Assembly: GCA_022482495.1 (NCBI GenBank)
Contig: JAKVPA010000008.1
Location: 59,406 to 123,405 of the forward strand
DNA length: 64,000 nt
Direction: 5' to 3'
DNA from: Sphaerochaeta sp.
Lineage (GTDB): Bacteria; Spirochaetota; Spirochaetia; Sphaerochaetales; Sphaerochaetaceae
Part shown: positions 2,427-53,031 of the stretch, piece after piece
Layout: every line of letters starts with the position of its first letter
Position numbering within the stretch: position 1 is the stretch's first letter
Made by a program: the position numbers and the translations under genes
Notes under the pieces: generated by a model
What the model was told of the DNA's origin: nothing
What the model saw: the letters and a program-made list of their open reading frames with translations, nothing else
The model's database searches: none

Positions 2427-3143
2427 TCACAGAAGGTGCTCGCCACCGTCGACATGGATCGTCTCCCCGGTGACGTATCCGGCATCCAGCAGGTACCGTA
2501 CGGCGCCCACTACGTCCCGGGGGGAGCCGGTGCGTCCCAGAGGGAGCACGGAGCGCATCTTTTCAAAGTACGCTTCATCCCCGGAAGGGAGGATGCACCC
2601 CGGCGCGACGGCGTTGACCCGAAGGTGCGGAGCAGATGCCTTGGCCAACAGCGTCGTTTCTTTGGCCAGGGACGCTTTCCCCAGCAGGTACGGCACCCTG
2701 CTGCTGTAGCCGGCATCAGCCCGGGTGTCAGTGATGTTCACCACCACACCCTCTCTTCCCTGTCCCTTCAACCAGTGAAAAAACGCCTGGGAAAGCAATA
2801 CAGGACTGGAAGCATGAACATCCAGCATTCTCCGGATATCCGCTTCGGTCATTTCCCCGAAGCGACACGGACTGAACTCAGAAGCGCTGACCACAATCCC
2901 ATCCAATTCCCCGAACCAGGCGACCGCCTGGGAGAACACTTCATCCATCGTCTGGGGACGGGAAAAATCTGCGTACACCATCCCAACCTGGCCAGGAAAA
3001 CGGGAGGCAAGCGCCTCTGCTTCCCCTTTGTCGGTATGCCACGTCACCACGACGCGTGCCCCATCAGTGAGCAGCGATTCACTGATGGCGAGCCCAACTC
3101 GATGGGCTCCTCCAGTCACCATATAGCTCTTTTTCGCATCCAT
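2427..3143 (-). CDS. SDR oxidoreductase, pteridine reductase/FolM-like
   Basis: A 238-residue short-chain dehydrogenase/reductase. It has the NAD(P)-binding TGGAHRVG near the N terminus and a YxxxK active site in PYLLGKASL. The Ser position of the catalytic triad appears to be occupied within VNITD. The R in TGGxxR, the VSASEF stretch and the NITD strand resemble the PTR1/FolM pteridine reductases more than the 3-ketoacyl-ACP reductases, so reduction of a pterin or dihydrofolate with NADPH is a reasonable guess. It ends VTGETIHVDGGE, as most SDRs do. The start is ATG 3143. A TAGAGT box lies 7 nt upstream with no Shine-Dalgarno. The substrate assignment is tentative. Confidence 0.8.
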   Translation of the reverse strand: MDAKKSYMVTGGAHRVGLAISESLLTDGARVVVTWHTDKGEAEALASRFPGQVGMVYADFSRPQTMDEVFSQAVAWFGELDGIVVSASEFSPCRFGEMTEADIRRMLDVHASSPVLLSQAFFHWLKGQGREGVVVNITDTRADAGYSSRVPYLLGKASLAKETTLLAKASAPHLRVNAVAPGCILPSGDEAYFEKMRSVLPLGRTGSPRDVVGAVRYLLDAGYVTGETIHVDGGEHLL

Positions 3144-3179
3144 TGGTTCCACTCTATCACAGATTGGGCCAAGATTCGA

Positions 3180-3208
3180 TTGCCGGCACCCCTGATGCGG
3201 GATATATT
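3180..3208 (+). promoter_or_regulatory. sigma-70-type promoter of ftsH
   Basis: TTGCCG (3180-3185), a 17-bp spacer and TATATT (3203-3208). The expected transcript start is near 3215, giving a short leader with AAGGA (3217-3221) before ATG 3228. Confidence 0.6.
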
Positions 3209-3227
3209 GAATGCATAAGGACAAGAT

Positions 3228-5192
3228 ATGGAAAACAATCAGCAAAACCTGTCTGAATTCGAAAAAGATCAGCAGCACCACAAGCAACCGAAAGAGGAGC
3301 CGGGTATCCATCTCGGTGGACCGGACCCCAACAAACGGAAGAAATTCACCTTTTCGTTCTGGTATTTCTTCATTTTCCTGATGCTGTTGTATCTGATCAA
3401 CAGCATGGCTTTGCAGAATGCGTCCCGTCGCGCGATCACCAAGATTGACTACAACCAGTTCAAGTCTTTGGTGGAGAGCGGGACCATCAAGCGGGTGGAA
3501 ATCACCGACGAACAGTACATCGGATACACCATCACCAAGGAACAGGCACAGACATCCCTGCAATCCAAGGATACGGAATCCATCCAGGACGCGCGCGCCT
3601 ACAGCACGTACATCGTGCAAAACGACAGCGCGTTCATCCCATTGTTGGACTCCAAAGGCGTGGAATACTACGCCACGGCTCCACAGAAACCAGGAATTGT
3701 CTCCACCATCCTCTCCTATGTGCTCCCCTTCATCTTCCTGATCATCATCTGGAGGATCATCTTCTCCAAGATGGGAGGAGCGGAACAGGGAGTGCTTTCC
3801 TTCAACCAGAACAAGGCGAAGATCGTCGCCGAGGGGGATACCGGAGTACGGTTCTCCGATGTGGCCGGCGTGGATGAGAGCAAGCAGGAGCTGGAGGAAG
3901 TGGTTGACTTCCTGAAGAACCCCCAGCGGTACACCGCCATGGGGGCGAAGATACCCAAGGGCGTGTTGCTGGTCGGTCCTCCGGGAACCGGCAAGACGCT
4001 TCTTGCCAAGGCGGTAGCCGGAGAAGCCGGTGTCCCGTTCTTCAAGATGAGCGGCGCGGACTTCGTCGAGATGTTCGTCGGTGTCGGCGCGGCGCGGGTG
4101 CGGGACCTGTTCAAACAGGCCAGGGAGAACAGCCCGTGCATCATCTTCATCGATGAAATCGACGCCATCGGCAGACAGCGGAGCGCCGCGTCCATCGGTG
4201 GCAACGACGAGCGGGAACAGACGCTGAACCAGTTGCTCGTCGAAATGGACGGGTTCGATTCCCGTACCGGCGTCATCATTCTGGCCGCCACCAACCGGCC
4301 GGAGATCCTTGACCCCGCCCTGCTCAGACCGGGCCGGTTCGACCGGCAGGTGCTGGTGGACAAGCCGGATCTGGAAGGCCGTTTCCAGATCCTTCAGATC
4401 CACACCAGGGGCATGAAGCTGGGGCCGGATGTCGACCTGCACAAGATCGCCCAGGCATCCGTCGGGCTTTCCGGAGCTGACCTTGCCAACATCGCCAACG
4501 AAGCGGCTCTGATGGCCGTCCGTGAAAAGCGTGAGCAGATCGCCCAGGTGGACTTCGAGGAAGCCATTGAGAAATCGGTGGCGGGACTGGAGCGGAAGAG
4601 CCGGGTGATGAATCCCGAGGAGCGCAAACGGGTCGCCTACCACGAAACGGGGCACGCCTTGACGGCGTTCATGACCAAAGGCGCAGAACCGGTATCCAAG
4701 ATCTCCATCGTTCCCCGTGGGATGGGAGCGCTGGGCTACACGCTGCAGTATCCGACGGAAGACCGGTTCCTGCTCAGCCAGAGCGAACTGTTGGGCAGCA
4801 TCGATACGATGCTCGGCGGCCGTGCGGCGGAGGAAGTGACCTTCCATGAGATCTCCACCGGAGCGAGCAACGATATTTCCCGTGCTTCCGATCTTGCCCG
4901 CCGGATGATCACCGAGTTCGGCATGAGCGAGAAGTTCCGCAACATCACGCTTCCCAAGACGGACAGCGGCATCCAAGGCGTCGGCGGCAGCCGTGAGTAC
5001 TCCGAGGACACGCAGAAGTACATCGACAACGAGACGGCCAGGATCATCAACGAACGGTACGCCGTGGTGAAGGACCACCTGGAAAAGAACAAGAAGGCAC
5101 TGTCCGACATCGCCGAACTGCTTCTGAAGCAGGAGGTGGTGGAAGGCAACCAGTTCGAAGAAATCGCCAAGAAAGAAGTGGTATTGGCGTAA
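3228..5192 (+). CDS. ftsH: ATP-dependent zinc metalloprotease FtsH
   Basis: A 654-residue membrane-bound AAA+ protease that degrades misfolded membrane proteins and short-lived regulators. There are two membrane helices (about residues 45-62 and 160-180) flanking a small periplasmic domain. The AAA+ module carries Walker A GPPGTGKT, Walker B IIFIDEID, the pore motif [10 protein letters not shown] and the second region of homology ending [13 protein letters not shown]. The M41 protease domain carries the zinc motif HETGH, followed by an Asp-bearing downstream segment. A coiled coil closes the protein. Length and motif order are normal. A sigma-70-type promoter lies just upstream and a hairpin terminator follows, so it is probably monocistronic. 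Confidence 0.97.
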
Positions 5193-5198
5193 CGAATG

Positions 5199-5221
5199 AC
5201 GCCCTCCCCCGCGGAGGGCGT
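5199..5221 (+). terminator. intrinsic terminator after ftsH
   Basis: A perfect 9-bp stem, ACGCCCTCC (5199-5207) with GGAGGGCGT (5213-5221), and a 5-nt loop, followed by a weak pyrimidine run (TCTCTT). It begins 6 nt after the ftsH stop. Confidence 0.75.
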
Positions 5222-5225
5222 TCTC

Positions 5226-5255
5226 TTGCCAAACAGGCCTCCCTCCAACTACAGT
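5226..5255 (+). promoter_or_regulatory. promoter of hslO, placed for a leaderless mRNA
   Basis: TTGCCA (5226-5231), an 18-bp spacer and TACAGT (5250-5255). The -10 box ends 6 nt before ATG 5262, so transcription should begin at or next to the start codon. Confidence 0.5.
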
Positions 5256-5261
5256 AGGGAC

Positions 5262-6209
5262 ATGATCAAACAACGAATCACCGACCCGGCTTTGCTGGAT
5301 CATCTTTCTCATGTGGCCAAAGACGACCGCTATTTTTATATTCTCTGCGACGGACAAGTCCGCCTGACCGCTCTGAGCGGCACGTTGATGCTCAACGAAA
5401 TGCAGGCGAACTTCCATACCGGTACGCTGGAGACCTACGTGTTGGGCAAGGCGTACCTGGCCGGAGCCCTGCTCGCCTCCACCGTCAAAGGCAACGACCG
5501 CATCCAGCTCAGCGTGGAATGCGGAGGGCCGCTGGGCGGCTACTTCGTCGAAGCGTGGGCCTGCGGAGCGGTGCGCGGATACCTGAAGCACAACCCCATC
5601 CCGTTGGACAAACCGCTTCAGAACAGCAATCTTTCCCTGCTGTACGGACCAGGGTTCCTCTCTGTCAGCAAGATTTTGGAAGGAGACAAACAACCCTACA
5701 CCGGGCAAGTGATGCTGGAGTACGGCAACCTTGCCAAAGACTTGGCGTTGTACTACCAGCAGAGCGAACAGACCCCATCGGTGTTCGACCTGTCCGTCCA
5801 GTTCGACCCGGCAGGCCACGTCAGCGGAGCCGGAGCCCTGTTCTTCCAGGTGCTCCCCGGATGCAAACCGGAGGTGCTCGACCAGCTGGAAAAGGTGGTC
5901 TCCACCCTCAAGCCGCTGGGTGCCTACCTGGAGACGGGAAAATCCATGGAGGATTACGTACAGGAATTCCTTTCCGACCTGAAACCGGAAAAGGTGGGTG
6001 GAGGAATCGTCGGCTTCTCCTGCCCCTGCGACCGCAACGGGTTCGCCGGGTATCTGAAGCACTTGCCTTCTTCCCAACGGGAAGATATCCTGCAACACGG
6101 GCCGTTCCCGTTGGAATTGGTCTGCGTCAACTGCGGGAGCGTGTATACGTTCACCAAAGATGAACTTGAAGGGTTGCTGAATGATCCAGCGGCCAAGGAG
6201 AAACAGTAA
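5262..6209 (+). CDS. hslO: redox-regulated chaperone Hsp33
   Basis: A 315-residue holdase that unfolds and dimerises when oxidised and prevents aggregation during oxidative stress. The N-terminal substrate-binding domain is typical (GTLETYVLGKAYLAGALLAST, ECGGPLGGY). The C-terminal switch has the four zinc-binding cysteines as C254-P-C256 and C288-V-N-C291, the family's CxC...CxxC pattern. I chose ATG 5262 because the domain starts there and a -10 box precedes it by 6 nt; an in-frame extension to 5196 would run back through the ftsH terminator. Its stop overlaps the next ATG by one base (TAATG), so it is coupled with rlmKL. Confidence 0.95.
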   Translation: MIKQRITDPALLDHLSHVAKDDRYFYILCDGQVRLTALSGTLMLNEMQANFHTGTLETYVLGKAYLAGALLASTVKGNDRIQLSVECGGPLGGYFVEAWACGAVRGYLKHNPIPLDKPLQNSNLSLLYGPGFLSVSKILEGDKQPYTGQVMLEYGNLAKDLALYYQQSEQTPSVFDLSVQFDPAGHVSGAGALFFQVLPGCKPEVLDQLEKVVSTLKPLGAYLETGKSMEDYVQEFLSDLKPEKVGGGIVGFSCPCDRNGFAGYLKHLPSSQREDILQHGPFPLELVCVNCGSVYTFTKDELEGLLNDPAAKEKQ

Positions 6210-8461
6210 TGGTTTTTTTCGTCACGTCGGCACAATACGTCAATGACATCATCAGCGAGGAGATCGCCAAGGCGGGGGGAACGGACATCAATCCGATCTC
6301 CGGCGGCGTGGAATTCAGCGGAGACCTGAAGGCGGCCTATACGTTCTGCCTGCAAAGTCACGCCGCCACCCGTGTGCTGCTTGGTCTGTACGAAGAAGAT
6401 GGCGTGGAATGTTCCGATGACCTGTACGCGGCATCCGTCGTCCTTCCCTGGGAACAGTGGCTTTCTCCAGAGAAGACGTTCGCCATCACCGAAACGGTCA
6501 AACACGTCGACTGGCTGCGCAATTCCCACTTCGCCGCCATCCGTCTGAAGGACGCCATCGTCGACCGTATCCGGTCCCAGTTCAACGACCAACGGCCCCA
6601 GGTGGATACGGACAACCCGGATGTGGTCTTCCACGTCCATCTGGACGGAGACCACGTCCAGTGGTACGTCGATTTCTCCGGCCGTGCGATGTACAAGCGA
6701 GGCTATCGTCGGGATGAGACGGAAGCCGTCCTGTCCGAATACCTTGCCAGCGCCGTGTTGTACCGCAGCGACTGGTTCAAGGCGATGCGCGCCGAAGGCA
6801 CCGTCCCGGTGCTGTTCGATCCGTTCTGCGGCAGCGGCACGCTTCCCATCGAAGCGGCGTTGTACGCCACCGACACGGCGCCAGGGATCATCAATCCGAA
6901 CCGCACGTTCGCCTTTGAGAAACTGCCGTTCCATGACGCCGCGCTGTGGGAGGGCTGCAAACAGGAAGCCATCGCAAAATCGGAAGAAGGGAAGAAACGC
7001 CCGGTGAAGATCTTTGCCTGGGATGTGGACAAGAACGCCATCAGGATCGCCAAGGAGAACGCCGCAGCGGCCGGCATGGATTCGTTCATCACCTTCGGGG
7101 TGCAGGATTTCACCGACACGCTGGCAGAGGATGTCCCTGCACCTCTGGGATACGTAGTCACCGACCCGCCCTACGGCGTGCGTCTGGACGACAATCCTTC
7201 CGCCCTTCCCCTGCTGTACCAGAAGATGGGGGACATCTTCTCCCAGCTGTTCCTTGGCTGGCACTTGTCTATCCTGTGCGGTGACCAGCGCCTCCTCTCC
7301 AACATCGACATGAAGCCCAACCGGACCAACAGTTTCATCAACGGCGGCATTCCCTGCCAGCTGGCCCACTACTATGTCTTCACCGCCGAAGAAAAGGCTG
7401 AATTGATCGCCAAAGCACAGAAACGCAGGGAGGAACGGCTTTCCCAACCGCTTTCCGAAGGTGCCCAGATGGCGTACAACCGTCTGAAGAAGAACCTGGA
7501 GGCCATCACCCCGCTGATGCAACAGCAAGGGGTCACCTGCTACCGGATCTATGACGCCGACATGCCGGAGTACAGCGCAGCCATCGACCTGTACGAGAAC
7601 ACCTGGATATCCCTGCAGGAGTACGAAGCGCCGGTCAGCATCCCGGAAGAGGACGCCGCACGACGTCTGGATGAATTGATCGACGCCACGGAGCGCGCCA
7701 CCGGCATCGACCGGGAGAAGATCTACATCAAGCGAAGGTCCATCCAGAGCGGCAAGAAGCAGTACATCAGGTTCGCCGACACCAGCAAGTACTACATCGT
7801 CAACGAGAATGGCGCCAAGTACCTGGTCAACTTCACCGACTACCTGGATACCGGACTGTTTTTGGACCATCGTCCCATCCGGGCGAGAATCGCCCAGATG
7901 GCCAACGGAAAACGGTTCTGCAACCTGTTCTGCTACACCGGCAGCGCTACGGTGCAGGCGGCCAAAGGCGGAGCGCTTTCCACCGTCAGCGTGGACAGCT
8001 CGTCCACCTATCTGGATTGGGCCCAGCAGAACATGCGGCTGAACGGATACACGACGATGAACCACTTCTACTATCGCTCCGACTGCATGCAGTTCCTGTA
8101 CGATACGTGGGACCGGTATGACCTGATCTTCTGCGATCCCCCCACCTACTCCAACAGCAAGAGCCGGGGAAGCTTCGACGTCCAGCGTGACCATGTCGAT
8201 CTGATCAAAGCGTGCATGATGCATCTGGATCCCGGTGGGATTTTGATCTTCTCCACCAACTTCCGCAGATTCAAGATGGCGCCGTTCCTGTACGACGACT
8301 GGGACATCCAGGACATCACTCCCGAGACCATCGGGGATGATTTCGCCAGAGATCCGAAGATCCACTTCTGCTATCTGATCCGGAAGAAGGAAGAGGCACA
8401 GGTGGTCAAACCGACGGTCGTACGCAAGGTGGTGCTGAAACAACATGCCGACAAGTCATGA
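6209..8461 (+). CDS. rlmKL: bifunctional 23S rRNA methyltransferase RlmKL
   Basis: A 750-residue two-domain SAM methyltransferase. In the family the N-terminal half (RlmL) makes m2G2445 and the C-terminal half (RlmK) makes m7G2069 in 23S rRNA. The order is: an N-terminal THUMP region, a UPF0020-type methyltransferase with DPFCGSGTLPIEAA and catalytic DPPYG, then a second Rossmann methyltransferase with the SAM loop FCYTGSATVQAA and DPPTYSNSK. Length and order match the fused enterobacterial protein. It is coupled to hslO upstream by a 1-nt overlap and to the CpXC gene downstream by a 17-nt overlap. Confidence 0.93.
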   Translation: MVFFVTSAQYVNDIISEEIAKAGGTDINPISGGVEFSGDLKAAYTFCLQSHAATRVLLGLYEEDGVECSDDLYAASVVLPWEQWLSPEKTFAITETVKHVDWLRNSHFAAIRLKDAIVDRIRSQFNDQRPQVDTDNPDVVFHVHLDGDHVQWYVDFSGRAMYKRGYRRDETEAVLSEYLASAVLYRSDWFKAMRAEGTVPVLFDPFCGSGTLPIEAALYATDTAPGIINPNRTFAFEKLPFHDAALWEGCKQEAIAKSEEGKKRPVKIFAWDVDKNAIRIAKENAAAAGMDSFITFGVQDFTDTLAEDVPAPLGYVVTDPPYGVRLDDNPSALPLLYQKMGDIFSQLFLGWHLSILCGDQRLLSNIDMKPNRTNSFINGGIPCQLAHYYVFTAEEKAELIAKAQKRREERLSQPLSEGAQMAYNRLKKNLEAITPLMQQQGVTCYRIYDADMPEYSAAIDLYENTWISLQEYEAPVSIPEEDAARRLDELIDATERATGIDREKIYIKRRSIQSGKKQYIRFADTSKYYIVNENGAKYLVNFTDYLDTGLFLDHRPIRARIAQMANGKRFCNLFCYTGSATVQAAKGGALSTVSVDSSSTYLDWAQQNMRLNGYTTMNHFYYRSDCMQFLYDTWDRYDLIFCDPPTYSNSKSRGSFDVQRDHVDLIKACMMHLDPGGILIFSTNFRRFKMAPFLYDDWDIQDITPETIGDDFARDPKIHFCYLIRKKEEAQVVKPTVVRKVVLKQHADKS

Positions 8462-9800: not shown

Positions 9801-9863
9801 ACCCAAACCTGTTGCGCTTCATAGTAGAGGATACACGAAAACATGGCAAGGAGCGGACCCAAA

Positions 9864-9889
9864 AAAGAGGGAGCCGACGCTCCCTCTTT
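9864..9889 (-). terminator. intrinsic terminator of the outer-membrane protein gene
   Basis: A perfect 11-bp stem (9864-9874 with 9879-9889) and a 4-nt loop. Read on the minus strand it ends in six U residues (A6 at 9861-9866). It lies 17 nt past the 9907 stop. Confidence 0.85.
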
Positions 9890-9906
9890 GCATTCACGAG
9901 ACATGT

Positions 9907-11010: not shown

Positions 11011-11129
11011 CTGATTTCTCCTTCTGGGAATATACAATTAACCTGAATAATAGTACATCTCTCTTTGAAGAATAACAAGTAATCGAAAAAGCGGCTACGT
11101 TTCCCATTTTCTTCTTCCCTGTTTCAGGA

Positions 11130-11135
11130 TATGCT
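11130..11135 (+). promoter_or_regulatory. -10 box 6 nt before the LOG-family start
   Basis: TATGCT at 11130-11135 ends 6 nt before ATG 11142. No convincing -35 is seen and there is no Shine-Dalgarno. This is the same arrangement as other leaderless candidates here. Confidence 0.35.
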
Positions 11136-11141
11136 GTACCC

Positions 11142-13538: not shown

Positions 13539-13555
13539 AGCACCCTCCAACGCAG

Positions 13556-13607
13556 AGCATAATCCGTTCGGCGGGAGATTGGCAATCTCCCCCAACCGTC
13601 CTATGAT
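13556..13607. promoter_or_regulatory. divergent promoters sharing a palindrome over both -35 boxes
   Basis: Plus strand: TTGGCA (13579-13584), 17 bp, TATGAT (13602-13607), then 7 nt to ATG 13615. Minus strand: TTGCCA (13585-13580), 18 bp, TATGCT (13561-13556) for the nucleotidyltransferase. The perfect inverted repeat GGGAGATT-GGC-AATCTCCC (13573-13591) covers both -35 boxes, so one regulator could control both genes. Confidence 0.55.
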
Positions 13608-13614
13608 GGGTGAT

Positions 13615-13887
13615 ATGGACAATTGCACATGGTATTCCGATGTGATCCGTTTCTGCCGGCAGAACGACACCTGCCAGCACTGTCCGTACCATCTGGTCAA
13701 CGACACCAAAATCGACGGTACGCTTCCCTGCTTCTCCAGCAAGGAAAACCTTGCTTTGCTTTCTGATTGGCTTGGGCAACCCCATCAGGGACAATCCGTG
13801 CCCGGCGAGGAGATCGAGTCAATGATGGACGAGATCGTCCAGGAAGACGACGAGGACTATCTGATGCATGATCTGGATCACGCCTGA
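13615..13887 (+). CDS. small Cys-rich protein, function unknown
   Basis: A 90-residue soluble protein. Five cysteines are packed in the first half (NCTW, RFC, DTCQHC, LPC), including a CxxC, which suggests a bound zinc or iron-sulfur site. The C terminus is strongly acidic (EEIESMMDEIVQEDDEDY). I do not recognise the family. ATG 13615 is chosen because a TTGGCA-17-TATGAT promoter ends 7 nt upstream; two earlier in-frame ATGs (13603, 13606) overlap the -10 box. Its last 10 bp overlap the end of the facing GH43 gene. Confidence 0.6.
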   Translation: MDNCTWYSDVIRFCRQNDTCQHCPYHLVNDTKIDGTLPCFSSKENLALLSDWLGQPHQGQSVPGEEIESMMDEIVQEDDEDYLMHDLDHA

Positions 13888-23502: not shown

Positions 23503-23522
23503 GTCTGTTGTCCCAAATTGAT

Positions 23523-23597
23523 GGCTCTATAGCTCAATTGGATTAGAGCGTCTCCCTCCGGAGGAGAAGGTCGTGCGTTCGAATCGCACTAGAGTCA
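23523..23597 (+). tRNA. tRNA-Arg, anticodon CCG
   Basis: All four arms fold. Acceptor GGCTCTA pairs with TAGAGTC (one G-T), the D stem is GCTC/GAGC, the anticodon stem TCTCC/GGAGA has loop CTCCGGA (anticodon CCG, reads CGG), and the T stem GTGCG/CGCAC has loop TTCGAAT. The discriminator base is A. The 3' CCA is not encoded and must be added enzymatically. A strong terminator follows immediately. Confidence 0.95.
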
Positions 23598-23600
23598 ACC

Positions 23601-23633
23601 ACAGGCCGCAGAAAACTGCGGCCTGTTTGTTTT
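23601..23633 (+). terminator. intrinsic terminator after tRNA-Arg
   Basis: A perfect 11-bp stem ACAGGCCGCAG (23601-23611) with CTGCGGCCTGT (23616-23626), loop AAAA, followed by TTGTTTT. On the other strand it sits just past the pectinesterase stop but lacks a U run. Confidence 0.9.
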
Positions 23634-24543
23634 ACGGCATCCCAAACGACGTGACCAACGTTGCGGCTTCCGCTTCCGTCAGCTCCCTCGCAGGAGGAAG
23701 ACGCCGCATCGGCTGTACACCGCTGCAATGATACTCTGCGAAGCCGAACCGCTTCTCCGCCTCCCGCCCCTGCCAGCCATGGAACCCATCCGGATGGATC
23801 TGGGCGCCATACGTGCAACGGATGCAGGTCACCTTTCCTTCGGGACGCCATGGGCGCATCAGATAGACCGAACCATCCGGCGCGCCGTCAGACAGAAAAC
23901 GGCAATCAGCAAAGACAAAGCCCCTGTCTCTCCGATTTCCCGAAGGGGCGGCGACATACCCCGGCCCCCGGGAGATGATGTCACAATGGGAGAACAATGC
24001 GTCCGCCCCGCCAAAAATGAAGTCAATGTCCCCGGTGATCACCGAATCGACGACCACCACCTCGCTTTTCAACCGGGGGGCGAACACCCGAGGGCCAAAG
24101 AACCCACGCGGTTCCCTCTCCTTCTGGGGAAGGGGAGCAAGGAACAACGTATCCTGCCACCCTTCCAGTGCCATCTTTTCCAATCTGGCATGCCGGACGT
24201 CCAGATACAATGCCACCGCCTGCCCCACCTCGCTTCCTTTCCCCGCCGTGTTGCGGATGGTCAGGTTCACCAAGCGCAGGCGCTCACCGGAAAAGAACGC
24301 TGTGGAGGAGCGGAACGTCCCCCGTTTGTATCCATCAGAGACCGTTTCCCACGCCCCATCGTCCCAGCTGACCACGGCGCCATCCTCCCCGACCAGCGTC
24401 AGGTCATGTTTGTCACAGAACAGCTTTTCGTGGTATTCACCCTTCTTCACCACCACCCTCGCCGGAATCCGGTACGGAATGGCGTCAAGCGCCTCCTGGA
24501 TGGAGGAGTAGTCCCCTCCTTTTCCCACGGTCAGTTCCACCAT
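23632..24543 (-). CDS. cytoplasmic pectinesterase (CE8)
   Basis: A 303-residue right-handed beta-helix enzyme removing methyl esters from galacturonate residues. Family motifs are present in order: GQAVAL, GWQDTLF (first catalytic Asp in QDT), GDIDFIFG (second catalytic Asp in DFIFG) and the Arg-Trp pair in MRPWRP. There is no signal peptide: the protein starts directly with the first helix strand (VELTVGKGGDYSSIQEALDAI). It would therefore act on imported oligogalacturonides inside the cell. ATG 24543 follows GGAGGGAG. No other pectin genes are adjacent, so the pathway partners must be elsewhere. Confidence 0.92.
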   Translation of the reverse strand: MVELTVGKGGDYSSIQEALDAIPYRIPARVVVKKGEYHEKLFCDKHDLTLVGEDGAVVSWDDGAWETVSDGYKRGTFRSSTAFFSGERLRLVNLTIRNTAGKGSEVGQAVALYLDVRHARLEKMALEGWQDTLFLAPLPQKEREPRGFFGPRVFAPRLKSEVVVVDSVITGDIDFIFGGADALFSHCDIISRGPGYVAAPSGNRRDRGFVFADCRFLSDGAPDGSVYLMRPWRPEGKVTCIRCTYGAQIHPDGFHGWQGREAEKRFGFAEYHCSGVQPMRRLPPARELTEAEAATLVTSFGMP

Positions 24544-24556
24544 GTCTCCCTCCGCC

Positions 24557-24585
24557 TTGAGCATACCCCGTTTCTCCGCTATGCT
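24557..24585 (+). promoter_or_regulatory. promoter of PAP2 gene, placed for a leaderless mRNA
   Basis: TTGAGC (24557-24562), 17 bp, TATGCT (24580-24585). The -10 box ends 6 nt before ATG 24592 and no Shine-Dalgarno is present. Confidence 0.5.
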
Positions 24586-24591
24586 TCCAGT

Positions 24592-28134: not shown

Positions 28135-28140
28135 AGCCCT

Positions 28141-28196
28141 ACTGTACCACGTTCCGTTTCAGCTGTCTTGCCGTCACGCCGCTTTTTCTTTACTCT
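28141..28196. promoter_or_regulatory. divergent overlapping promoters of zur and the YmdB-like gene
   Basis: Minus: AAGACA (28169-28164), 17 bp, TACAGT (28146-28141), 6 nt to ATG 28134. Plus: TTGCCG (28168-28173), 17 bp, TACTCT (28191-28196), 6 nt to ATG 28203. The -35 boxes overlap, so the two polymerases should compete. Both transcripts are predicted to be leaderless. Confidence 0.55.
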
Positions 28197-28202
28197 AAGA
28201 GT

Positions 28203-29420: not shown

Positions 29421-29450
29421 TGGACGCACCTTTCCGTTCGCCACTATACT
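29421..29450 (+). promoter_or_regulatory. promoter of the lptC operon, placed for a leaderless mRNA
   Basis: TGGACG (29421-29426), 18 bp, TATACT (29445-29450), ending 7 nt before ATG 29458. No Shine-Dalgarno is present. Confidence 0.45.
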
Positions 29451-29457
29451 GGTAGCC

Positions 29458-33452: not shown

Positions 33453-33458
33453 GTTCCA

Positions 33459-33487
33459 AAGATACATGCAAACGAACAAAACGTCAT
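33459..33487 (-). promoter_or_regulatory. promoter of the dioxygenase gene, placed for a leaderless mRNA
   Basis: On the minus strand: ATGACG (33487-33482), 17 bp, TATCTT (33464-33459), 6 nt to ATG 33452. Confidence 0.45.
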
Positions 33488-33892: not shown

Positions 33893-33920
33893 TTGTCTTC
33901 CCCAAAAAACATGCTAACCT
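33893..33920 (+). promoter_or_regulatory. promoter of the Gfo/Idh/MocA-like gene, placed for a leaderless mRNA
   Basis: TTGTCT (33893-33898), 16 bp, TAACCT (33915-33920), 6 nt to ATG 33927. Confidence 0.4.
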
Positions 33921-33926
33921 TAAGCT

Positions 33927-40032: not shown

Positions 40033-40039
40033 ACCTACC

Positions 40040-40085
40040 ATCATACGAACAGACGGTTGCAAAGGCAACGCCGACGACCTAGGAT
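40040..40085. promoter_or_regulatory. back-to-back promoters of uvrC and the SPL-like gene
   Basis: Minus (uvrC): TTGCCT (40068-40063), 17 bp, TATGAT (40045-40040), 7 nt to ATG 40032. Plus (SPL-like): TTGCAA (40057-40062), 17 bp, TAGGAT (40080-40085), 7 nt to ATG 40093. The two -35 boxes are adjacent and account for the short palindrome GTTGC-AAAG-GCAAC. Both mRNAs should be leaderless. Confidence 0.6.
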
Positions 40086-40092
40086 AGCGGGT

Positions 40093-42259: not shown

Positions 42260-42260
42260 C

Positions 42261-43082: not shown

Positions 43083-43104
43083 GGCAAACCTCTCCTTCAA
43101 TCAA

Positions 43105-43821: not shown

Positions 43822-43827
43822 ACGTCC

Positions 43828-45363: not shown

Positions 45364-45371
45364 GATGTCTC

Positions 45372-45377
45372 ATCATA
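45372..45377 (-). promoter_or_regulatory. -10 box 8 nt before malQ
   Basis: TATGAT on the minus strand (45377-45372). No convincing -35 at the expected distance. Confidence 0.3.
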
Positions 45378-45422
45378 TCGCAGAAGGAGATATTTGCATA
45401 GTTTCCCCATTTCCGCAATTCA

Positions 45423-45451
45423 TTGTTTTTCTCCGTTTTATCGTGTATAAT
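45423..45451 (+). promoter_or_regulatory. promoter of cdnL, placed for a leaderless mRNA
   Basis: TTGTTT (45423-45428), 17 bp, consensus TATAAT (45446-45451), 6 nt to ATG 45458. This is the best -10 box in the window and has no ribosome site behind it. Confidence 0.65.
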
Positions 45452-45457
45452 GACGGT

Positions 45458-45958: not shown

Positions 45959-45959
45959 C

Positions 45960-47197: not shown

Positions 47198-47211
47198 CAT
47201 CGAGGTGTCTT

Positions 47212-47754
47212 ATGCAACCCACCATGATCATCTACTACGGTTCTCCCCGTACATTTGGCAATTCCGCCACCCTTGCTGACGCGTTCGCCGTGGCGGCGTC
47301 CCACAGCTGTCACGTGAAGAAAGTCAAGCTGAACGCTGCGGTCATCCATCCCTGCCAGGGATGCGACCACTGCAAGGAGGAAGAGGGTTCCTGCATCTGG
47401 GATGACGACATGATTCCCCTTGCCAAGGATTTCGCCGCGGCGGATGCCGTCTGCTTCGCCACCAGCGTCTACTGGTGGGGCATCACCGCACAGACCAAGC
47501 TGTTCATTGATCGTCTGTATCTGTTACCGAAAGCAGCGTTCACCGGCAAGCACCTGTACGTCATCGCCGTCGGAGAGGACGCGGTGAACGGCATCCAGTA
47601 TTCGTTGATCGACCGGCAGTTCAAGGAGATCGCAACCTACACCGGCATGTCGTACGACGGCTTCCTTCCCGTCAGCGCCGATGACGACCACCTTGCGGCG
47701 GACAACATGGAAGCGATGGAACAGGCAAAGCGCCTGTTCAAGGGAATCGAGTAA
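47212..47754 (+). CDS. flavodoxin-fold NAD(P)H-dependent FMN reductase family protein
   Basis: A 180-residue flavoprotein. The FMN phosphate loop is YYGSPRTFGNSATLA. The Cys cluster HPCQGCDHCKEEEGSCIWDDDM and ATSVYWWGITAQTKLFIDR are typical of the iron-sulfur flavoprotein/NADPH-FMN-reductase branch. Whether a cluster is bound is unclear. ATG 47212 follows GAGGTG, 14 bp after ispF, so it may be the last gene of that operon. Its end overlaps the facing HAD gene by 17 bp. Confidence 0.85.
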   Translation: MQPTMIIYYGSPRTFGNSATLADAFAVAASHSCHVKKVKLNAAVIHPCQGCDHCKEEEGSCIWDDDMIPLAKDFAAADAVCFATSVYWWGITAQTKLFIDRLYLLPKAAFTGKHLYVIAVGEDAVNGIQYSLIDRQFKEIATYTGMSYDGFLPVSADDDHLAADNMEAMEQAKRLFKGIE

Positions 47755-48379
47755 GCAACTCCTGGGGGGAAGCGACGCTTCCCTGGGGCGCGGAGATTCG
47801 GGAAAACCCGAATCCGTAGGTGACCGGGACGAACCCCACCCCGGCGACGTTCGCGCCGTTCTGGTCGTGGGTGGTATCCCCGACCAACACTGCTTCCTCC
47901 GGCTTCACATGGGTGTCTGAGAGTACCAGACGGAGTACATCCGCCTTGGTCCTCCCCCCAGCGAGGGTGGAGAAGTCCCCGTGGATCGAAACGAAATACG
48001 GCGCCAGCGCGTAATGGCGCATCATGTTCACCGCAGTGGATTCGTTCTTCAGCGTCCCGACGGCAAGAAGATATCCCCGCTCCTTCAACGTCTTCAGCAC
48101 CATCTGCATCCCGGGATAGACCAACGCCTGGTACTGGCCATCGGAAACATACCGCTTCTTGTAGATGGCCAACGCGTCATCCAAATACTGGTCGGGAAGA
48201 TCATAGACCACCTTGAAGCACTGGGCGATGGGAGGCCCGATGAACTTGCGCATCTGTTCCTCGGGAACATCCGGGGAAAGCCCCAGACGACGCATCGTGT
48301 ACTTCGCCGTGGCGAAGATCCCCGGGGAAGTGTCCAGCAACGTCCCGTCCAGATCGAAAATTACCAAGCGGGGCTTCAC
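47738..48379 (-). CDS. HAD-superfamily phosphatase (phosphoglycolate phosphatase-like)
   Basis: A 213-residue HAD hydrolase. Motif I FDLDGTLLDT contains the nucleophile Asp. Motif II Thr is in VGTLKNES, motif III Lys is in GRTKADVL, and motif IV is VGDTTHDQNGA. A helical cap lies between motifs I and II (about residues 20-90). GTG 48379 overlaps the stop of the upstream inositol-phosphatase-like gene (GTGA), with GGAGAC as ribosome site. Substrate unknown; Gph-like by length and cap. Confidence 0.88.
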   Translation of the reverse strand: MKPRLVIFDLDGTLLDTSPGIFATAKYTMRRLGLSPDVPEEQMRKFIGPPIAQCFKVVYDLPDQYLDDALAIYKKRYVSDGQYQALVYPGMQMVLKTLKERGYLLAVGTLKNESTAVNMMRHYALAPYFVSIHGDFSTLAGGRTKADVLRLVLSDTHVKPEEAVLVGDTTHDQNGANVAGVGFVPVTYGFGFSRISAPQGSVASPQELLTRFP

Positions 48380-49155
48380 TGTGCCGTCTCCCAAAGCCAC
48401 TCCTGGATCTTCCCGTTGGACGCCACCAGGTCACACCGCAACGCTTCCCGCTCTCCAAGAAACTGGAGCACTCCCCCCGCTTCACGGAGGATCGCCCAAC
48501 CGGCGGCAAGGTCATAGTAGCAGAGGAACCGTTCAAAATAGCCATCCAGACGTCCGGCGGCGATGTAGGCCAGCTCCAGCGCGCAGGAGCCGAACGAACG
48601 GATATCACTGCAGGCGGAGAAGATCCGCTGCTCCGCATGGAAGTACGCATCCGCCGCTTCATGATAGCGGTGTGGCGGCACGCAGACGATGACGGACTTG
48701 GAAGGATCAACCGTCCGGGAGACGGAGATCGGTTTGCCATTCAGATGTGCCCCCTCCCCCCGTACCGCGGTGAACAGCTCATCCTGACGGACAACATACA
48801 CCACACCAATGAGCGGGTCGAACGGTTCGGTTTCCCATGCGATGCTGATCGTCCAGTCGGGAATCCCATGCATGTAGTTGGTCGTCCCGTCGATCGGATC
48901 GATCACCCACCGGCCTGCCAAAGTTCCATGGTGGGTTCCGCTCTCCTCCCCGAAAATCTCCTCATCGGGAAACGTTTCTTTGATCGCCCGGATGATCAGA
49001 TCCTCACACGCCTTGTCGGCGTTGGTGACAAAATCATTGACGTGCTTCTCCGAGATCAGAAGATTCCCCTTCTCCGCCAGGGATACGGCCAAAGCGCCGG
49101 CCTTGCGGGCGGCATCCACCGCCACGGCAAGGTGTGCCTGAAGCACCTCGCTCAT
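48376..49155 (-). CDS. inositol monophosphatase-family phosphatase
   Basis: A 259-residue Mg-dependent sugar-phosphatase of the SuhB/CysQ group. Metal motifs are EEIFGEESG and WVIDPIDGTTNYMHG, with YYDLAAGWAILREAGG at the C-terminal side. It could act on inositol-phosphate, a nucleotidase substrate (pAp) or fructose-bisphosphate. ATG 49155 overlaps the stop of the 888-residue gene (ATGA), with AAGGAAG upstream, so the three genes 888-IMPase-HAD are translationally linked. Confidence 0.92.
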   Translation of the reverse strand: MSEVLQAHLAVAVDAARKAGALAVSLAEKGNLLISEKHVNDFVTNADKACEDLIIRAIKETFPDEEIFGEESGTHHGTLAGRWVIDPIDGTTNYMHGIPDWTISIAWETEPFDPLIGVVYVVRQDELFTAVRGEGAHLNGKPISVSRTVDPSKSVIVCVPPHRYHEAADAYFHAEQRIFSACSDIRSFGSCALELAYIAAGRLDGYFERFLCYYDLAAGWAILREAGGVLQFLGEREALRCDLVASNGKIQEWLWETAQ

Positions 49156-51818
49156 GCTTTCTTCCTTTTGGCCAGAAGCCGCTCCCCGATGGTGGAGACG
49201 TACTTCCAATCCCCTGCGGAATAGCTCTGCCGCTTGATTTCTTCCTCAGACGCTTTGATCAGATGCCCTTCCCGGTCATACTCCAACGTGACGCATCCCC
49301 AGTCATCCTTCTTGTCGGCGTACATGATGGCTCCGATGTTGGCCCTGCGGTCAAACGTACTGACCTGGTCATCCCTGCCGGCGGAAAGGATCACGGTGAG
49401 TCCGAACGGACTGATGGTGAACATCTTGTCCTTCCCATCCATCCGCTGGGCATCCAGCGCCTTGTCGATCAACGAAGCGGACGCGGAAAGCAGCGAAGGG
49501 TCTCCTTCCTTGCACCACGTGAAAAAGCGCCCCTCATGGGTCTTCAGCATCACCAGCGCGTCCCGAAGACGGGAGGGAATCTGCTTGCCATCCAACAGTG
49601 CATCCACCACTTCCGGTTCCTTGGGTGTCTCTTCCACCAGGGTTTCCGGTGCGGGTGCAGGATGGTCGGATGGAATTGTTTCTTCTGAAGAAGTGGCAGG
49701 AGTTTCCTGTACGGGCACCTCGGATGGAATCACATCATGACCGACCGGAGGCGCCACAGGAGATTCCTCTTTTGCTTCCGGTACAGCTTCCGTACCCGGT
49801 ATTTTCTCCACAGAAACCTCTTGCGTAGGTTCTCCCGTTGCTTCGGCCTGGGCGGCTGGAACGGGTTGTTCCTCTTCTGGTTCCGTTGGAGGTGTGACGT
49901 CCGCTTCCGTCTTGTCCTCCACGGTTTCCGCGGCCGCTTCCAGAATATCCTCCCTGCCTTGGAAGAGATCAGGTTGGATGTCTTCGGTCGCAGGTTTCGC
50001 CGGCCAATCGGGATGATTTCCCTCCTGGGGCGGATTCTCCGGCTTCTCCGGCTTCTCCTCCCTTCCTCCGGCAATCTCGGAGAGCAACGTGAAGAACGAA
50101 TACGGCTTGTTGGTCTCCTCGTGTTTCTCCTGAGGCGGCAACTCGTCGTCGTCATGGGGATCGATCATCTCTTTGGTGTCGTCCTCGTCCAACTCGTCAT
50201 CCGTATGCTTTTCCTCCACCTGGTCTTCATCCACCGTCTCTCCGTTCAGGATGGAGAAATCAGGATCATCCGGTTCGTCTGGTTCATCAGGCTCCCCTTC
50301 GTCCTCCACCGGCACATCCTCGTCGGGTTCCGATTCATCCCGGAGAATCGATTCCGCCGTATCCAGTTCGTCGTCATCTTCCTGCCGGGGCGGAACCAGC
50401 CCCAACGCCTCTTTGCAGGCACGCAGCGTATCGGGATCCTGGGAAAGCCCTGCGAGTTGGGGGAACGAAAGGAACAGCACGTTGTCCACCAAGTCGGTGG
50501 GATAGTCATCCACATGGTTCTCATCCACGATGATCACCGGGGTGCGCTGTGTCTTCGCCCGCGCGATGGTCTGTCTTCCCTGGGAGAAGGCAAGGAGCGA
50601 TGCGCGGCCATCCAGCAGAGGATCGACAGGAAGCGGAGGCAGGACGTTCAGTCCTACCTGGGTATCGGAGAAATCAAACAGGGCGTCAAACCCTGACGTA
50701 TTCCGCACGAATCCGGTGGAGCCGAACAACGCGTGGATCATCGTCACCGGCTGCATCACCTGCTGTTCCCGTTCAATCTTCTCCCATTCTTCTGCGGAGA
50801 GCACCCCTTTGGCGAGCACCTGTTCCTTGACGATCCGGGGAAGGTCATCCAGCAGATGGTTGGTGTCAAAACAGAAGAAGTGGCCGGCTGCTTCAAGGAA
50901 CGGCCGACTTGCCGAGACCCGGTCATCCATCGGATACAGGCTGGCGTCGCTCTCATCGGAACACAACGGCACGGAGAGCAACGCAAGGTCTTCCGGGGCC
51001 AAGGATGCGTACCGTGTCACTTCGTACAGGTCGTATCCGTCACGGCGACCCAACAGGGACCGCACCCGCTCCTCCCAATGCTCACGACGCACCACTTGGT
51101 CGACCAGCTCCTTCTCCTCGGCATAGGTGTCCGTGAGCGCACGGAGTTCCTTCAGCTTCTGCTCCATGTCCTTCTTGTAGACACGACTGTCCGCTTCCAA
51201 GGTGTCCAGTCCCGTCCTGCCCTGGGTGACCAACGCGGAGAACGCGGTGAGCAACCCATCCAGACCTCCGGTGAACGTCTGGGAAATGGCATCGTTGAAC
51301 GGCTGCAGGGAGAGCCGCAACGAGCGCACATGCCGGGGGATCTCATCCAATTCCATCGGGGTGGGGAAACAGAACTCCATGACGGAATCCTGGTAGGCGG
51401 ACAACACGCTTCCTTTGACGCCACCCGCGGCGTTCCGCGCCGCCAAACAGGTGTTGTCGATGTACCGGCAACATCTGCGGAACAGATCCTCAAAAAGTTC
51501 AGTCAACCGCCGATACTCTTTGGGAGGGATATTGCGGTCCGTAGCTGGCCCCATCCCGGCAAGACAGTAGGCGTTCTGCAGGAACCGCACCAAGGCGCTT
51601 GCCAGGCGGATCTCTTCATCACTCCCCGAGGAGAGTACCCGATGCTCCTCCCAACAGGCAAGTTTGAGCATTTCCAACGGGGCGTATCGGCTGAGGATCG
51701 CCACCATCTGACGGATGTCGTTGTCCAGATACACCGTCACTTCTCGGATGTTCCGTTGGATCTTGTCGGTGGGAATATCCCCGACATTGCTGAAATCCCA
51801 ATTCTGACTGCTTTTCAC
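49152..51818 (-). CDS. unrecognised 888-residue protein with acidic central region
   Basis: No known family was recognised. Residues 1-470 are mainly helical, with a likely coiled coil about 205-260 (YKKDMEQKLKELRALTDTYAEEKELVDQVV) and a globular part with FFCFDTNHLLDDLPRIVKE and PVIIVDENHVDDYPTDLVDNVLFLSF. Residues about 476-736 are low-complexity and very acidic (runs of E, D and P). A compact domain (about 736-888) ends with TISPFGLTVILSAG, WGCVTLEYDREGHLIKASEEE and a basic tail. There is no signal peptide or membrane helix. GTG 51818 follows AGGTGG. It is coupled to the inositol-phosphatase-like gene by a 4-nt overlap. Confidence 0.75.
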   Translation of the reverse strand: MKSSQNWDFSNVGDIPTDKIQRNIREVTVYLDNDIRQMVAILSRYAPLEMLKLACWEEHRVLSSGSDEEIRLASALVRFLQNAYCLAGMGPATDRNIPPKEYRRLTELFEDLFRRCCRYIDNTCLAARNAAGGVKGSVLSAYQDSVMEFCFPTPMELDEIPRHVRSLRLSLQPFNDAISQTFTGGLDGLLTAFSALVTQGRTGLDTLEADSRVYKKDMEQKLKELRALTDTYAEEKELVDQVVRREHWEERVRSLLGRRDGYDLYEVTRYASLAPEDLALLSVPLCSDESDASLYPMDDRVSASRPFLEAAGHFFCFDTNHLLDDLPRIVKEQVLAKGVLSAEEWEKIEREQQVMQPVTMIHALFGSTGFVRNTSGFDALFDFSDTQVGLNVLPPLPVDPLLDGRASLLAFSQGRQTIARAKTQRTPVIIVDENHVDDYPTDLVDNVLFLSFPQLAGLSQDPDTLRACKEALGLVPPRQEDDDELDTAESILRDESEPDEDVPVEDEGEPDEPDEPDDPDFSILNGETVDEDQVEEKHTDDELDEDDTKEMIDPHDDDELPPQEKHEETNKPYSFFTLLSEIAGGREEKPEKPENPPQEGNHPDWPAKPATEDIQPDLFQGREDILEAAAETVEDKTEADVTPPTEPEEEQPVPAAQAEATGEPTQEVSVEKIPGTEAVPEAKEESPVAPPVGHDVIPSEVPVQETPATSSEETIPSDHPAPAPETLVEETPKEPEVVDALLDGKQIPSRLRDALVMLKTHEGRFFTWCKEGDPSLLSASASLIDKALDAQRMDGKDKMFTISPFGLTVILSAGRDDQVSTFDRRANIGAIMYADKKDDWGCVTLEYDREGHLIKASEEEIKRQSYSAGDWKYVSTIGERLLAKRKKA

Positions 51819-51852
51819 CGCCTGCCACCTACTTGTATAGTATCATCACCTT

Positions 51853-52998
51853 TCACGTTTCCTCAACCGTTTGCAGTCGTGCTTTCAGCACAACGAACAA
51901 AACGGCGGAAAGCGCCGCGGGAAGAGCGTACCACAGGAACATTGCGCGGTATCCGACCGCCTGGATCAACAGACCGCAGGCGAACTCCCCGACCATTCCT
52001 CCCAGTCCGCTCCCCAACGACTGGCACAGGGAGAGCCCCTGGGCGGTATGATCCTTGTGGACGTGAAGCGTGACGAACCGAACCATGGCAGGCTGGAAGA
52101 ACCCGAAGCAGAGGCTGTGGAAGCATTGCCCGATCATCACGCCGGCGACGGAAGGGATCAGGGCGTAGCAGATCTGCCGGACGATGCATCCCACCGAAGC
52201 AAGGAACAGCAACGTAACCGGCTGTACGGATTTCTTCTGCATCAGATACCCTGCGGCAAGCATGGCGACGAATTCCGAGGCGGTGGAAGCGACCTGCAGC
52301 ATCGTCACCCGGTCATAGCCCAACTCCTCGATGGCGTACAGGGGAAGGAACCGGACGGTGGCCAGGGAAAAACGGGAGAGGAAAATGCATCCGATGGCAA
52401 GGACGAACGACGTGTCAAACCACCTGTCCCGAGAGCGGGGTGCGTCCTTCGGTTTCACCCGAGGCGTGTCCCGGCCCATGACCAGCAACGTGGGGATGTA
52501 CAGCAGGGAACCGAAGGCAAGAAAACGGAAGATATCCTGGTTGTCCGACGCCACCGGACGAGCCATCAGTGCGTACACCAAGCTGAAAAAGGTACAGCCG
52601 ATGGTTCCGGCGGAACGGATGATGCTGTAGACATCCGGCTGTCCCTTGCCGAACTGGTTCGCCGACGCGTCCTGCAACGTGAGGGACGAATTGAGGAAAA
52701 ACCCCAGCAGGACAAGCAGCAACAATCCCGGAAGGAATGCTCCCGTCCGGATGAGAAGCGCCATGGCGCCGACGGTGACGGCCATGCACACCAGTTGGGT
52801 CAGCCGCATTTTTCCCGTCCGGTCGACAAACCAACCGGTGGCAACCTGCCCGCCCATCCCGGAGAGCTCGAAGACGGCGAACATCACCCCGATCATCGCA
52901 TAGGAGAACCCTTGGTTCTTCAATACCACCTGCAGGTACATGTTGGTGATGGTGAAGACCGCCTGCAGGAGGAAAAACGAAACACTCTGGGAGACCAT
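51853..52998 (-). CDS. MFS transporter (LacY/NHS-like, 12 helices)
   Basis: A 381-residue membrane protein with about 12 hydrophobic helices (for example GVMFAVFELSGMGGQVATGWFVDRTGKMRLTQ, the family's loop 2-3 motif). The GxxxDRxGk-like motif and the overall layout fit the major facilitator superfamily, perhaps the nucleoside/sugar branch. I prefer ATG 52998 because a TACCAT box ends 7 nt upstream; an in-frame ATG at 53025 is also possible. It follows the radical-SAM gene. Substrate unknown. Confidence 0.85.
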   Translation of the reverse strand: MVSQSVSFFLLQAVFTITNMYLQVVLKNQGFSYAMIGVMFAVFELSGMGGQVATGWFVDRTGKMRLTQLVCMAVTVGAMALLIRTGAFLPGLLLLVLLGFFLNSSLTLQDASANQFGKGQPDVYSIIRSAGTIGCTFFSLVYALMARPVASDNQDIFRFLAFGSLLYIPTLLVMGRDTPRVKPKDAPRSRDRWFDTSFVLAIGCIFLSRFSLATVRFLPLYAIEELGYDRVTMLQVASTASEFVAMLAAGYLMQKKSVQPVTLLFLASVGCIVRQICYALIPSVAGVMIGQCFHSLCFGFFQPAMVRFVTLHVHKDHTAQGLSLCQSLGSGLGGMVGEFACGLLIQAVGYRAMFLWYALPAALSAVLFVVLKARLQTVEET

Positions 52999-53031
52999 GC
53001 CCCCTATGGTATCGGGAAGCGGCATTTGATG

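What the first reader, a model, noticed from the sequence alone, without database searches (positions are those of the whole stretch)
3143..53011. Many genes have a -10 box 6-8 nt before the ATG and no Shine-Dalgarno: predicted leaderless transcription
Fifteen starts share the layout TAnnnT - 6 to 8 nt - ATG: SDR 3143 (TAGAGT), hslO 5262 (TACAGT), LOG 11142 (TATGCT), Cys-rich 13615 (TATGAT), PAP2 24592 (TATGCT), zur 28134 (TACAGT), YmdB-like 28203 (TACTCT), lptC 29458 (TATACT), dioxygenase 33452 (TATCTT), Gfo/Idh 33927 (TAACCT), uvrC 40032 (TATGAT), SPL-like 40093 (TAGGAT), malQ 45363 (TATGAT), cdnL 45458 (TATAAT), MFS 52998 (TACCAT). Most also have TTGnnn or a near match 16-18 bp upstream. 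Chance for TAnnnT in a three-position window is only about 5 percent per gene. Genes with ordinary leaders and AGGAGG sites coexist (ftsH, hprK, ZnuA, hpf). TAnnnT-before-ATG promoters are known from Deinococcus and some other phyla; I am not aware that this is described for this kind of organism. It also settles several start codons (uvrC, 13615, PAP2).
Basis: partly seen in the sequence, partly recalled or inferred. Interest (0 to 1): 0.72.

Follow-up and report, generated by a model that had tools for sequence, protein, structure and literature searches.

The report
Promoters abutting start codons: leaderless genes
In this spirochaete an estimated one gene in ten has its promoter so close to the start codon that its messenger RNA is predicted to begin at the start codon itself, an arrangement already known from other bacteria; the gene cdnL shows it in most of the related genomes examined, and its promoter keeps its distance even where the start codon has moved.

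Summary
All 15 hexamers lie 6-8 nt before the named ATGs. In 864 kb (38%) of the genome, with starts called without any upstream motif, TAnnnT begins at -13/-12 in 46 of 331 first-in-unit ATG genes, against 3 of 226 operon-internal genes and 60 of 5741 internal ATGs. A TTG box, not used in the search, sits 16-18 bp upstream of 26 of these 46. Promoter-to-ATG distances are bimodal: 33 at 6-9 nt, 1 at 10-16, 31 at 17-30. SD-like motifs accompany 3 of 33 near promoters against 50 of 65 distant ones. Leaderless transcription is the best reading, for about 10% of genes (hand estimate). The kind is known: Zheng 2011 described this TANNNT signal and listed 6 of 18 Spirochaetes genomes; Leptospira has mapped leaderless mRNAs. 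The added result is cdnL: TAnnnT 6-8 nt before an in-frame ATG in 53 of 72 genomes of the class (42 with TTG at 16-18 bp), following shifted ATGs, and in 0 of 14 loci read outside the class. Pooled samples of other family members show little signal. No transcript data were available.

The parts
45423..45457 (+). cdnL (CarD-type regulator) predicted leaderless promoter: -35 TTGTTT 45423-45428, spacer 17, -10 TATAAT 45446-45451, 6 nt, ATG 45458
   Evidence: Pfam CarD_C and CarD_TRCF_RID; layout in 53 of 72 class genomes
40033..40068 (-). uvrC predicted leaderless promoter: -35 TTGCCT 40063-40068, spacer 17, -10 TATGAT 40040-40045, 7 nt, ATG 40032
   Evidence: both boxes kept in G001 and G002; uvrC by NCBIfam
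40057..40092 (+). SPL-like gene predicted leaderless promoter: -35 TTGCAA 40057-40062 (abuts uvrC's -35), spacer 17, -10 TAGGAT 40080-40085, 7 nt, ATG 40093
   Evidence: the start model called it SD because of AGGAT, but G001 and G002 have TATCAT at 6 nt with TTGCCT 18 bp upstream; Pfam SPL
28168..28202 (+). YmdB-like metallophosphoesterase (TIGR00282) predicted leaderless promoter: -35 TTGCCG 28168-28173, -10 TACTCT 28191-28196, 6 nt, ATG 28203
   Evidence: TAnnnT at 6-8 nt in 16 of 17 family loci read, this one included (counted by eye)
28135..28146 (-).
   Evidence: (0.96); divergent from YmdB, 68 bp between the starts
5226..5261 (+). hslO (Hsp33): -35 TTGCCA 5226-5231, spacer 18, -10 TACAGT 5250-5255, 6 nt, ATG 5262
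   Evidence: (0.97); the one orthologue read (G004) lacks the layout
11130..11141 (+). LOG-family gene: -10 TATGCT 11130-11135, 6 nt, ATG 11142; -35 only TTTTCT
   Evidence: (0.96); TAnnnT in G004 (8 nt) and G024 (7 nt)
13579..13614 (+). 90-aa Cys-rich ORF: -35 TTGGCA 13579-13584, -10 TATGAT 13602-13607, 7 nt, ATG 13615
   Evidence: (0.83); no Pfam or NCBIfam hit
24557..24591 (+). PAP2 phosphatase: -35 TTGAGC 24557-24562, -10 TATGCT 24580-24585, 6 nt, ATG 24592
   Evidence: (0.97); N-terminus reads like a signal peptide (by eye)
29445..29457 (+). lptC: -10 TATACT 29445-29450, 7 nt, ATG 29458; -35 2 of 3 letters
   Evidence: (0.99)
33453..33464 (-). LigB-type extradiol dioxygenase: -10 TATCTT 33459-33464, 6 nt, ATG 33452; weak
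   Evidence: (0.50)
33893..33926 (+). Gfo/Idh-like gene: -35 TTGTCT 33893-33898, spacer 16, -10 TAACCT 33915-33920, 6 nt, ATG 33927
   Evidence: (0.77); Pfam match just under its cut-off
45364..45377 (-). malQ: -10 TATGAT 45372-45377, 8 nt, ATG 45363; -35 2 of 3 letters
   Evidence: the start model preferred a TTG 10 codons on, but TAnnnT stands 6-7 nt before the matching ATG in 4 of 5 orthologues (two more cut by locus edges)
52999..53011 (-). MFS transporter: -10 TACCAT 53006-53011, 7 nt, ATG 52998; no TTG
   Evidence: (0.95)
3144..3156 (-). SDR gene: -10 TAGAGT 3151-3156, 7 nt, ATG 3143; weakest of the 15
   Evidence: missed by the gene caller, so untested by the start model

Best explanation
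An estimated one in ten genes of this spirochaete, mainly first genes of likely transcription units, carry a sigma-70-like promoter (TTG, 16-18 bp, TAnnnT) whose -10 box ends 6-7 nt before the ATG, so RNA polymerase is predicted to start the mRNA at or within a base or two of the A of ATG and translation would begin on a leaderless mRNA without a Shine-Dalgarno site. Shown in the sequence: both boxes, their distance to the ATG, the scarcity of SD motifs there, the nearly empty zone at 10-16 nt, the contrast of first and inner genes in this genome, and conservation of several starts in relatives. Inferred: the transcript start, and initiation by 70S ribosomes with initiator tRNA on the 5'-terminal AUG (established for leaderless mRNAs elsewhere; recalled). 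Most operon-internal genes and most genes with promoters 17 nt or more away have ordinary SD sites in the same genome.
For: Position spike with motif-free starts: 46 of 331 first genes against 3 of 226 inner genes and 60 of 5741 internal ATGs. The -35 was not used in the model, yet appears 17 bp up (T 0.73, T 0.55, G 0.52): TTG at spacer 16-18 in 26 of 46, at 13-15 and 19-21 in 0 of 46 (motif-free starts; with modelled starts 44 of 83 at 16-18, 0 at 13-15 and 19-20, 3 at 21). Strict promoters to ATG in 331 first genes: 2 at 0-5 nt, 33 at 6-9, 1 at 10-16, 31 at 17-30. SD-like motif with 3 of 33 near and 50 of 65 far promoters, P 6e-11. Footprints: YmdB 6 of 6, LOG 2 of 2, malQ 4 of 5, uvrC and SPL in both congeners. 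cdnL: TAnnnT 6-8 nt before an in-frame ATG in 33 of 36 family and 20 of 36 other class genomes, 0 of 14 outside; the ATG lies from 4 to 15 codons before the conserved domain in the clear cases, yet the box keeps its distance.
Against: No transcript 5' ends were available for this genome. With upstream regions shuffled (which also destroys SD sites) the start model still-56 of 729 genes leaderless against 98 observed, so single calls are fallible. Pooled samples of up to 20 kb of 20 other family genomes show 10 of 142 first and 7 of 151 inner genes at -13/-12, no contrast, with about 3.6 per position upstream; in 20 other families 17 of 120 first and 5 of 94 inner, but -16 and -15 hold 9 and 7 as well; G004 6 of 45 against 1 of 36, G023 4 of 55 against 1 of 23, G031 0 of 28 against 0 of 31. 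hslO in G004 lacks the layout. The -10 box occupies part of the stretch scanned for SD, which lowers the near-promoter SD count by construction; first genes without a strict promoter have an SD-like motif in only 94 of 233.
Confidence: 0.92

Rival explanations
1. The boxes are real but secondary promoters: the main transcript starts further upstream and has a leader; the start-proximal promoter only adds a minor leaderless form.
For: Strict matching misses weak promoters, so a distant main promoter cannot be excluded gene by gene (one search counts strict matches only).
Against: Only 1 of 33 near-promoter genes also has a strict distant promoter, and SD-like motifs are scarce at these genes (3 of 33), so a leadered form would mostly lack a ribosome site; most cdnL loci of the class show no SD motif.
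Confidence: 0.05
2. Many start codons are misplaced: translation starts at a downstream codon, and these are ordinary promoters with short leaders.
Against: Misplaced starts would not give a fixed distance of 6-7 nt with 10-16 nt nearly empty; in cdnL the box follows the ATG.
Confidence: 0.02
3. TAnnnT is an A/T-rich translation signal, as proposed for some other phyla, not a promoter.
For: AT-rich upstream biases at non-SD genes are described (PMC5397173, passages read).
Against: A TTG box at 16-18 bp with none at 13-15 and 19-21 in the motif-free set is a promoter hallmark; in this genome the signal is nearly confined to first genes (3 of 226 inner genes).
Confidence: 0.01

Closest known systems
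TA-led leaderless genes of bacteria (Zheng et al. 2011, PMC3160421; passages read)
   Same: Same TANNNT hexamer about 12 bp before the start, same reading as a -10 box; proximal rather than distal genes; Spirochaetes already in its table
   Different: The estimated share here (about 10% of genes) is above the 1.8-6.9% given for six Spirochaetes genomes; the methods differ, so the comparison is loose
Leaderless mRNAs of Leptospira interrogans (PMC5243855; abstract and passages read)
   Same: Same phylum; about 440 transcripts with leaders under 10 nt, mapped by dRNA-seq
   Different: Motif discovery there found no general -10/-35 motif (apart from sigma-54 sites), and a sigma-70 scan was judged unreliable; here both boxes are clear
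Leaderless genes of Deinococcus deserti and Mycobacterium tuberculosis (as cited in PMC5243855, passage read; details recalled)
   Same: Many leaderless mRNAs beside leadered ones
   Different: Other phyla; 1174 and 505 leaderless mRNAs reported there

Membership tests
Bacterial TA-led leaderless genes | TANNNT about 12 bp before the start, in excess over controls | tested here: met
   46 of 331 first genes at -13/-12; 60 of 5741 internal ATGs
Bacterial TA-led leaderless genes | Box belongs to a promoter with a -35 at 16-18 bp | tested here: met
   26 of 46, none at spacers 13-15 and 19-21
Bacterial TA-led leaderless genes | No SD at these starts | tested here: met
   3 of 33 against 50 of 65; partly favoured by construction
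Bacterial TA-led leaderless genes | Operon-proximal genes | tested here: met
   3 of 226 genes with a same-strand gap under 30 bp in this genome; not seen in the pooled family sample, 7 of 151 inner genes
Bacterial TA-led leaderless genes | Transcript starts at the start codon | not testable with these tools
   no RNA data for this genome
Bacterial TA-led leaderless genes | Translated from a 5'-terminal AUG | not testable with these tools
   needs reporters or proteomics

The most novel reading that the evidence does not exclude
A leaderless promoter on cdnL is an ancestral, selected trait of the class Spirochaetia: the mRNA of the RNA-polymerase-binding regulator CdnL is translated SD-independently, so its output follows ribosome and initiation-factor status and closes a feedback loop from ribosome state to transcription initiation, with loss in Borrelia-like genomes.
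Probability: 0.15. Interest if true: 0.72.

Novelty: new member of a known kind. Interest (0 to 1): 0.45.

Why it matters
If true, it fixes start codons that tools built on SD sites can miss, adds a lineage of spirochaetes to the users of leaderless genes, and offers a single-gene marker (cdnL) whose leaderless layout has been kept while its N-terminus changed, which makes the question of why leaderless genes persist directly testable.

Tried and rejected
Per-genome tests on single stretches of up to 20 kb of 40 relatives were too small to rank genomes; only pooled counts are used, and the family pool is weak. A shared-geometry idea for divergent pairs (two face-to-face leaderless promoters giving a fixed gap near 66 bp) was checked: of 104 divergent pairs, those with at least one leaderless member have shorter gaps (median 107.5, n 44, against 215, n 59; one overlapping pair dropped; P 3e-4), but there is no sharp peak, so it is not claimed. 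The idea that the 90-aa ORF at 13615 has leaderless paralogues was dropped after reading three other short products. A whole-genome pattern count was judged too noisy and not run. A first cdnL count (26 of 30 family, 14 of 26 other class) missed some start codons and was replaced (26 of 30, 15 of 26) and, with the 16 class loci still unread, (33 of 36, 20 of 36). Paper searches: leaderless with spirochete (14 papers), Sphaerochaeta (0), CdnL (2), CarD and promoter (45, 12 listed), spirochaetes (9), GeneMarkS-2 (58, 15 listed), leaderless mRNA with Treponema (1), and a four-term search (152, 15 listed). In these listings, and in the passages read of the two CdnL papers (where leaderless stands only in the reference lists), I saw no statement that cdnL is leaderless. 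Supplementary tables could not be read.

Full report
Identity. The window is G000:C8:59406-123405 of a 2.25-Mb genome in 14 contigs. The nearest named records are Spirochaetales/Spirochaetaceae MAGs (SUG1938, RUG023, Spiro_02; uvrC identity 77, 76, 72%) and the same search returns Bullifex porci; NCBI places Bullifex in Spirochaetia. That the family is the Sphaerochaeta one, and the class Spirochaetia, is my inference; kinship labels (genus, family, class) are those of the genome search.

Observation. An exact TTG is found 16-18 bp upstream in 8 of 15, two of three letters in 6, one in zur. The named genes were checked: uvrC, malQ, LOG (TIGR00730), LptC and the extradiol dioxygenase are over an NCBIfam cut-off; HslO, the YmdB-like protein and the Fur-type regulator are below theirs; SDR, PAP2, SPL-like, MFS and CarD are over Pfam cut-offs; Gfo/Idh is just under; the 90-aa ORF at 13615 has no hit.

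Genome test. I took 40 stretches of 20 kb plus the window (864 kb), called 729 genes with codon statistics and start codons without any upstream motif, and kept ATG genes that are divergent from, or at least 60 bp behind, their upstream neighbour (331 first genes). TAnnnT begins at -13 in 13 and at -12 in 33, 46 of 331 together; two-position bins from -60 to -17 average 10.7 and peak at 22 (P 2e-6 against the peak). Controls: 3 of 226 genes with a same-strand gap under 30 bp, and 60 of 5741 internal in-frame ATGs. The window holds 7 of 26, the rest 39 of 305.

Promoter nature. A two-signal start model converged on spacing 6 (58%) and 7 (24%), hexamer TA[TC][AGC][CA]T, with 98 leaderless, 505 SD and 126 unassigned of 729; 56 of 208 divergent genes and 12 of 256 genes with same-strand gaps under 30 bp were leaderless. 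The model knew nothing of a -35, yet T, T, G, C, C stand out 17 bp up. With motif-free starts TTG is at spacer 16, 17, 18 in 3, 18, 5 of 46, and in 0 of 46 at each of 13, 14, 15, 19, 20, 21; with modelled starts it is 6, 29, 9 of 83, and 3 of 83 at 21. The distance from a strict promoter to the ATG is bimodal: 2 at 0-5 nt, 33 at 6-9, 1 at 10-16, 31 at 17-30, 24 at 31-60, 15 at 61-100. First genes with a near promoter have an SD-like motif in 3 of 33, those with a distant one in 50 of 65, those with neither in 94 of 233. So promoters mostly either end at the ATG or leave room for an SD site.

Share. From 26 of 46 motif-free and 48 of 93 modelled genes with TTG at 16-18 bp I estimate by hand about 70 true leaderless genes of 729, near 10%; 5-13% is a fair range. 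Against this, shuffled upstream regions still give 36-56 calls, though shuffling also removes SD sites.

Relatives. Orthologues in syntenic stretches keep the layout for YmdB in 6 of 6, LOG 2 of 2, malQ 4 of 5, and for uvrC and SPL in both congeners, where the two promoters stand back to back with TTGCC boxes; hslO in G004 does not. For SPL this outweighs the model's SD call. Apart from cdnL, treated below, the other window genes had no readable orthologue start there. Pooled samples: in 20 family genomes 10 of 142 first and 7 of 151 inner genes at -13/-12, no contrast; in 20 other families of the class 17 of 120 first and 5 of 94 inner genes, with 9 and 7 also at -16 and -15; single genomes with larger samples: G004 6 of 45, G023 4 of 55, G031 0 of 28 first genes. 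Strict promoters at 6-9 / 10-16 / 17-30 nt: 9 / 2 / 19 among 242 first genes of 22 family genomes, and 13 / 4 / 10 among 148 of 21 others. The signal is thus weaker or harder to see outside this genome.

cdnL. cdnL was found in 60 of 61 relatives and 100 of 120 genomes drawn from the phylum. I read the start regions of all 72 class genomes with a match (36 of the family, 36 of other families) and 14 of the 83 matches outside the class. TAnnnT 6-8 nt before an in-frame ATG: 33 of 36, 20 of 36, 0 of 14; with TTG at 16-18 bp: 27, 15, 0. Eight further class genomes have a strict promoter only at 9-11 nt; 11 have neither. The same count at other three-position spacings gives TAnnnT in at most 8 of 36 family loci and at most 11 of 36 other class loci, the latter at 9-11 nt, and outside 6-11 nt a strict promoter in at most 1 and 2 of 36. 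Two family cases (G014, G046) rest on ATGs 37-40 codons before the domain without TTG and may be chance. The SD-motif scan rang in 5 of the 72 class loci (3 of them one Borrelia-like genus at a plausible start, one inside the promoter of G009, one far upstream in G055) and in 8 of 14 outside loci. In the clear cases the ATG lies from 4 to 15 codons before the conserved domain, yet the box keeps its distance to it. By contrast YmdB has the layout in 16 of 17 family but 2 of 13 other class loci (counted by eye). These genomes are related and are not independent trials.

Functions. Of the 48 leaderless calls with TTG at 16-18 bp, 41 lie outside the window; 29 of these 41 were scanned. Pfam shows RNase HII, ScpA, an HhH-GPD protein, RNase H, MnmE, QueH, an AP_endonuc_2 protein, Lgt, BacA, adenosine deaminase, Rpe, an AraC-type regulator and others; several have no hit. 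No enrichment test was made.

Known or new. Zheng 2011 gives exactly this signal and reading from 953 bacterial genomes and lists Spirochaetes; Leptospira dRNA-seq shows about 440 short-leader mRNAs; the StartLink paper cites 21.6% of bacterial species as predicted users of leaderless transcription (passages read). The finding is therefore a new member of a known kind. The class-wide cdnL case did not appear in the searches named under Tried and rejected.

Noticed in passing
window 40033-40092: uvrC and an SPL-like gene are divergent with 60 bp between them and abutting -35 boxes; two congeners keep the pair and both promoters, which suggests joint control of two likely DNA-repair genes.
   Followed up: partly
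G000 sample (logo): The -35 element here tends to TTGCC/TTGCAA rather than TTGACA; cdnL mostly has TTGTT in its own family and TTGACT in other families of the class.
   Followed up: partly
L106:18977-19249 and L118:8686-8955: Two short ORFs behind clear leaderless promoters look like cut-off N-terminal pieces of longer enzymes (by eye, recalled); they may be frameshifted genes or assembly errors.
   Followed up: no
L297, L298, L328 (G054, G162, G157): Three Borrelia-like genomes of one genus have an SD-led cdnL, unlike most of the class.
   Followed up: partly
window 23522-23601: The only tRNA gene found in the window, tRNA-Arg (CCG), lies about 30 bp from the 3' end of the minus-strand gene 23632-24564.
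   Followed up: no
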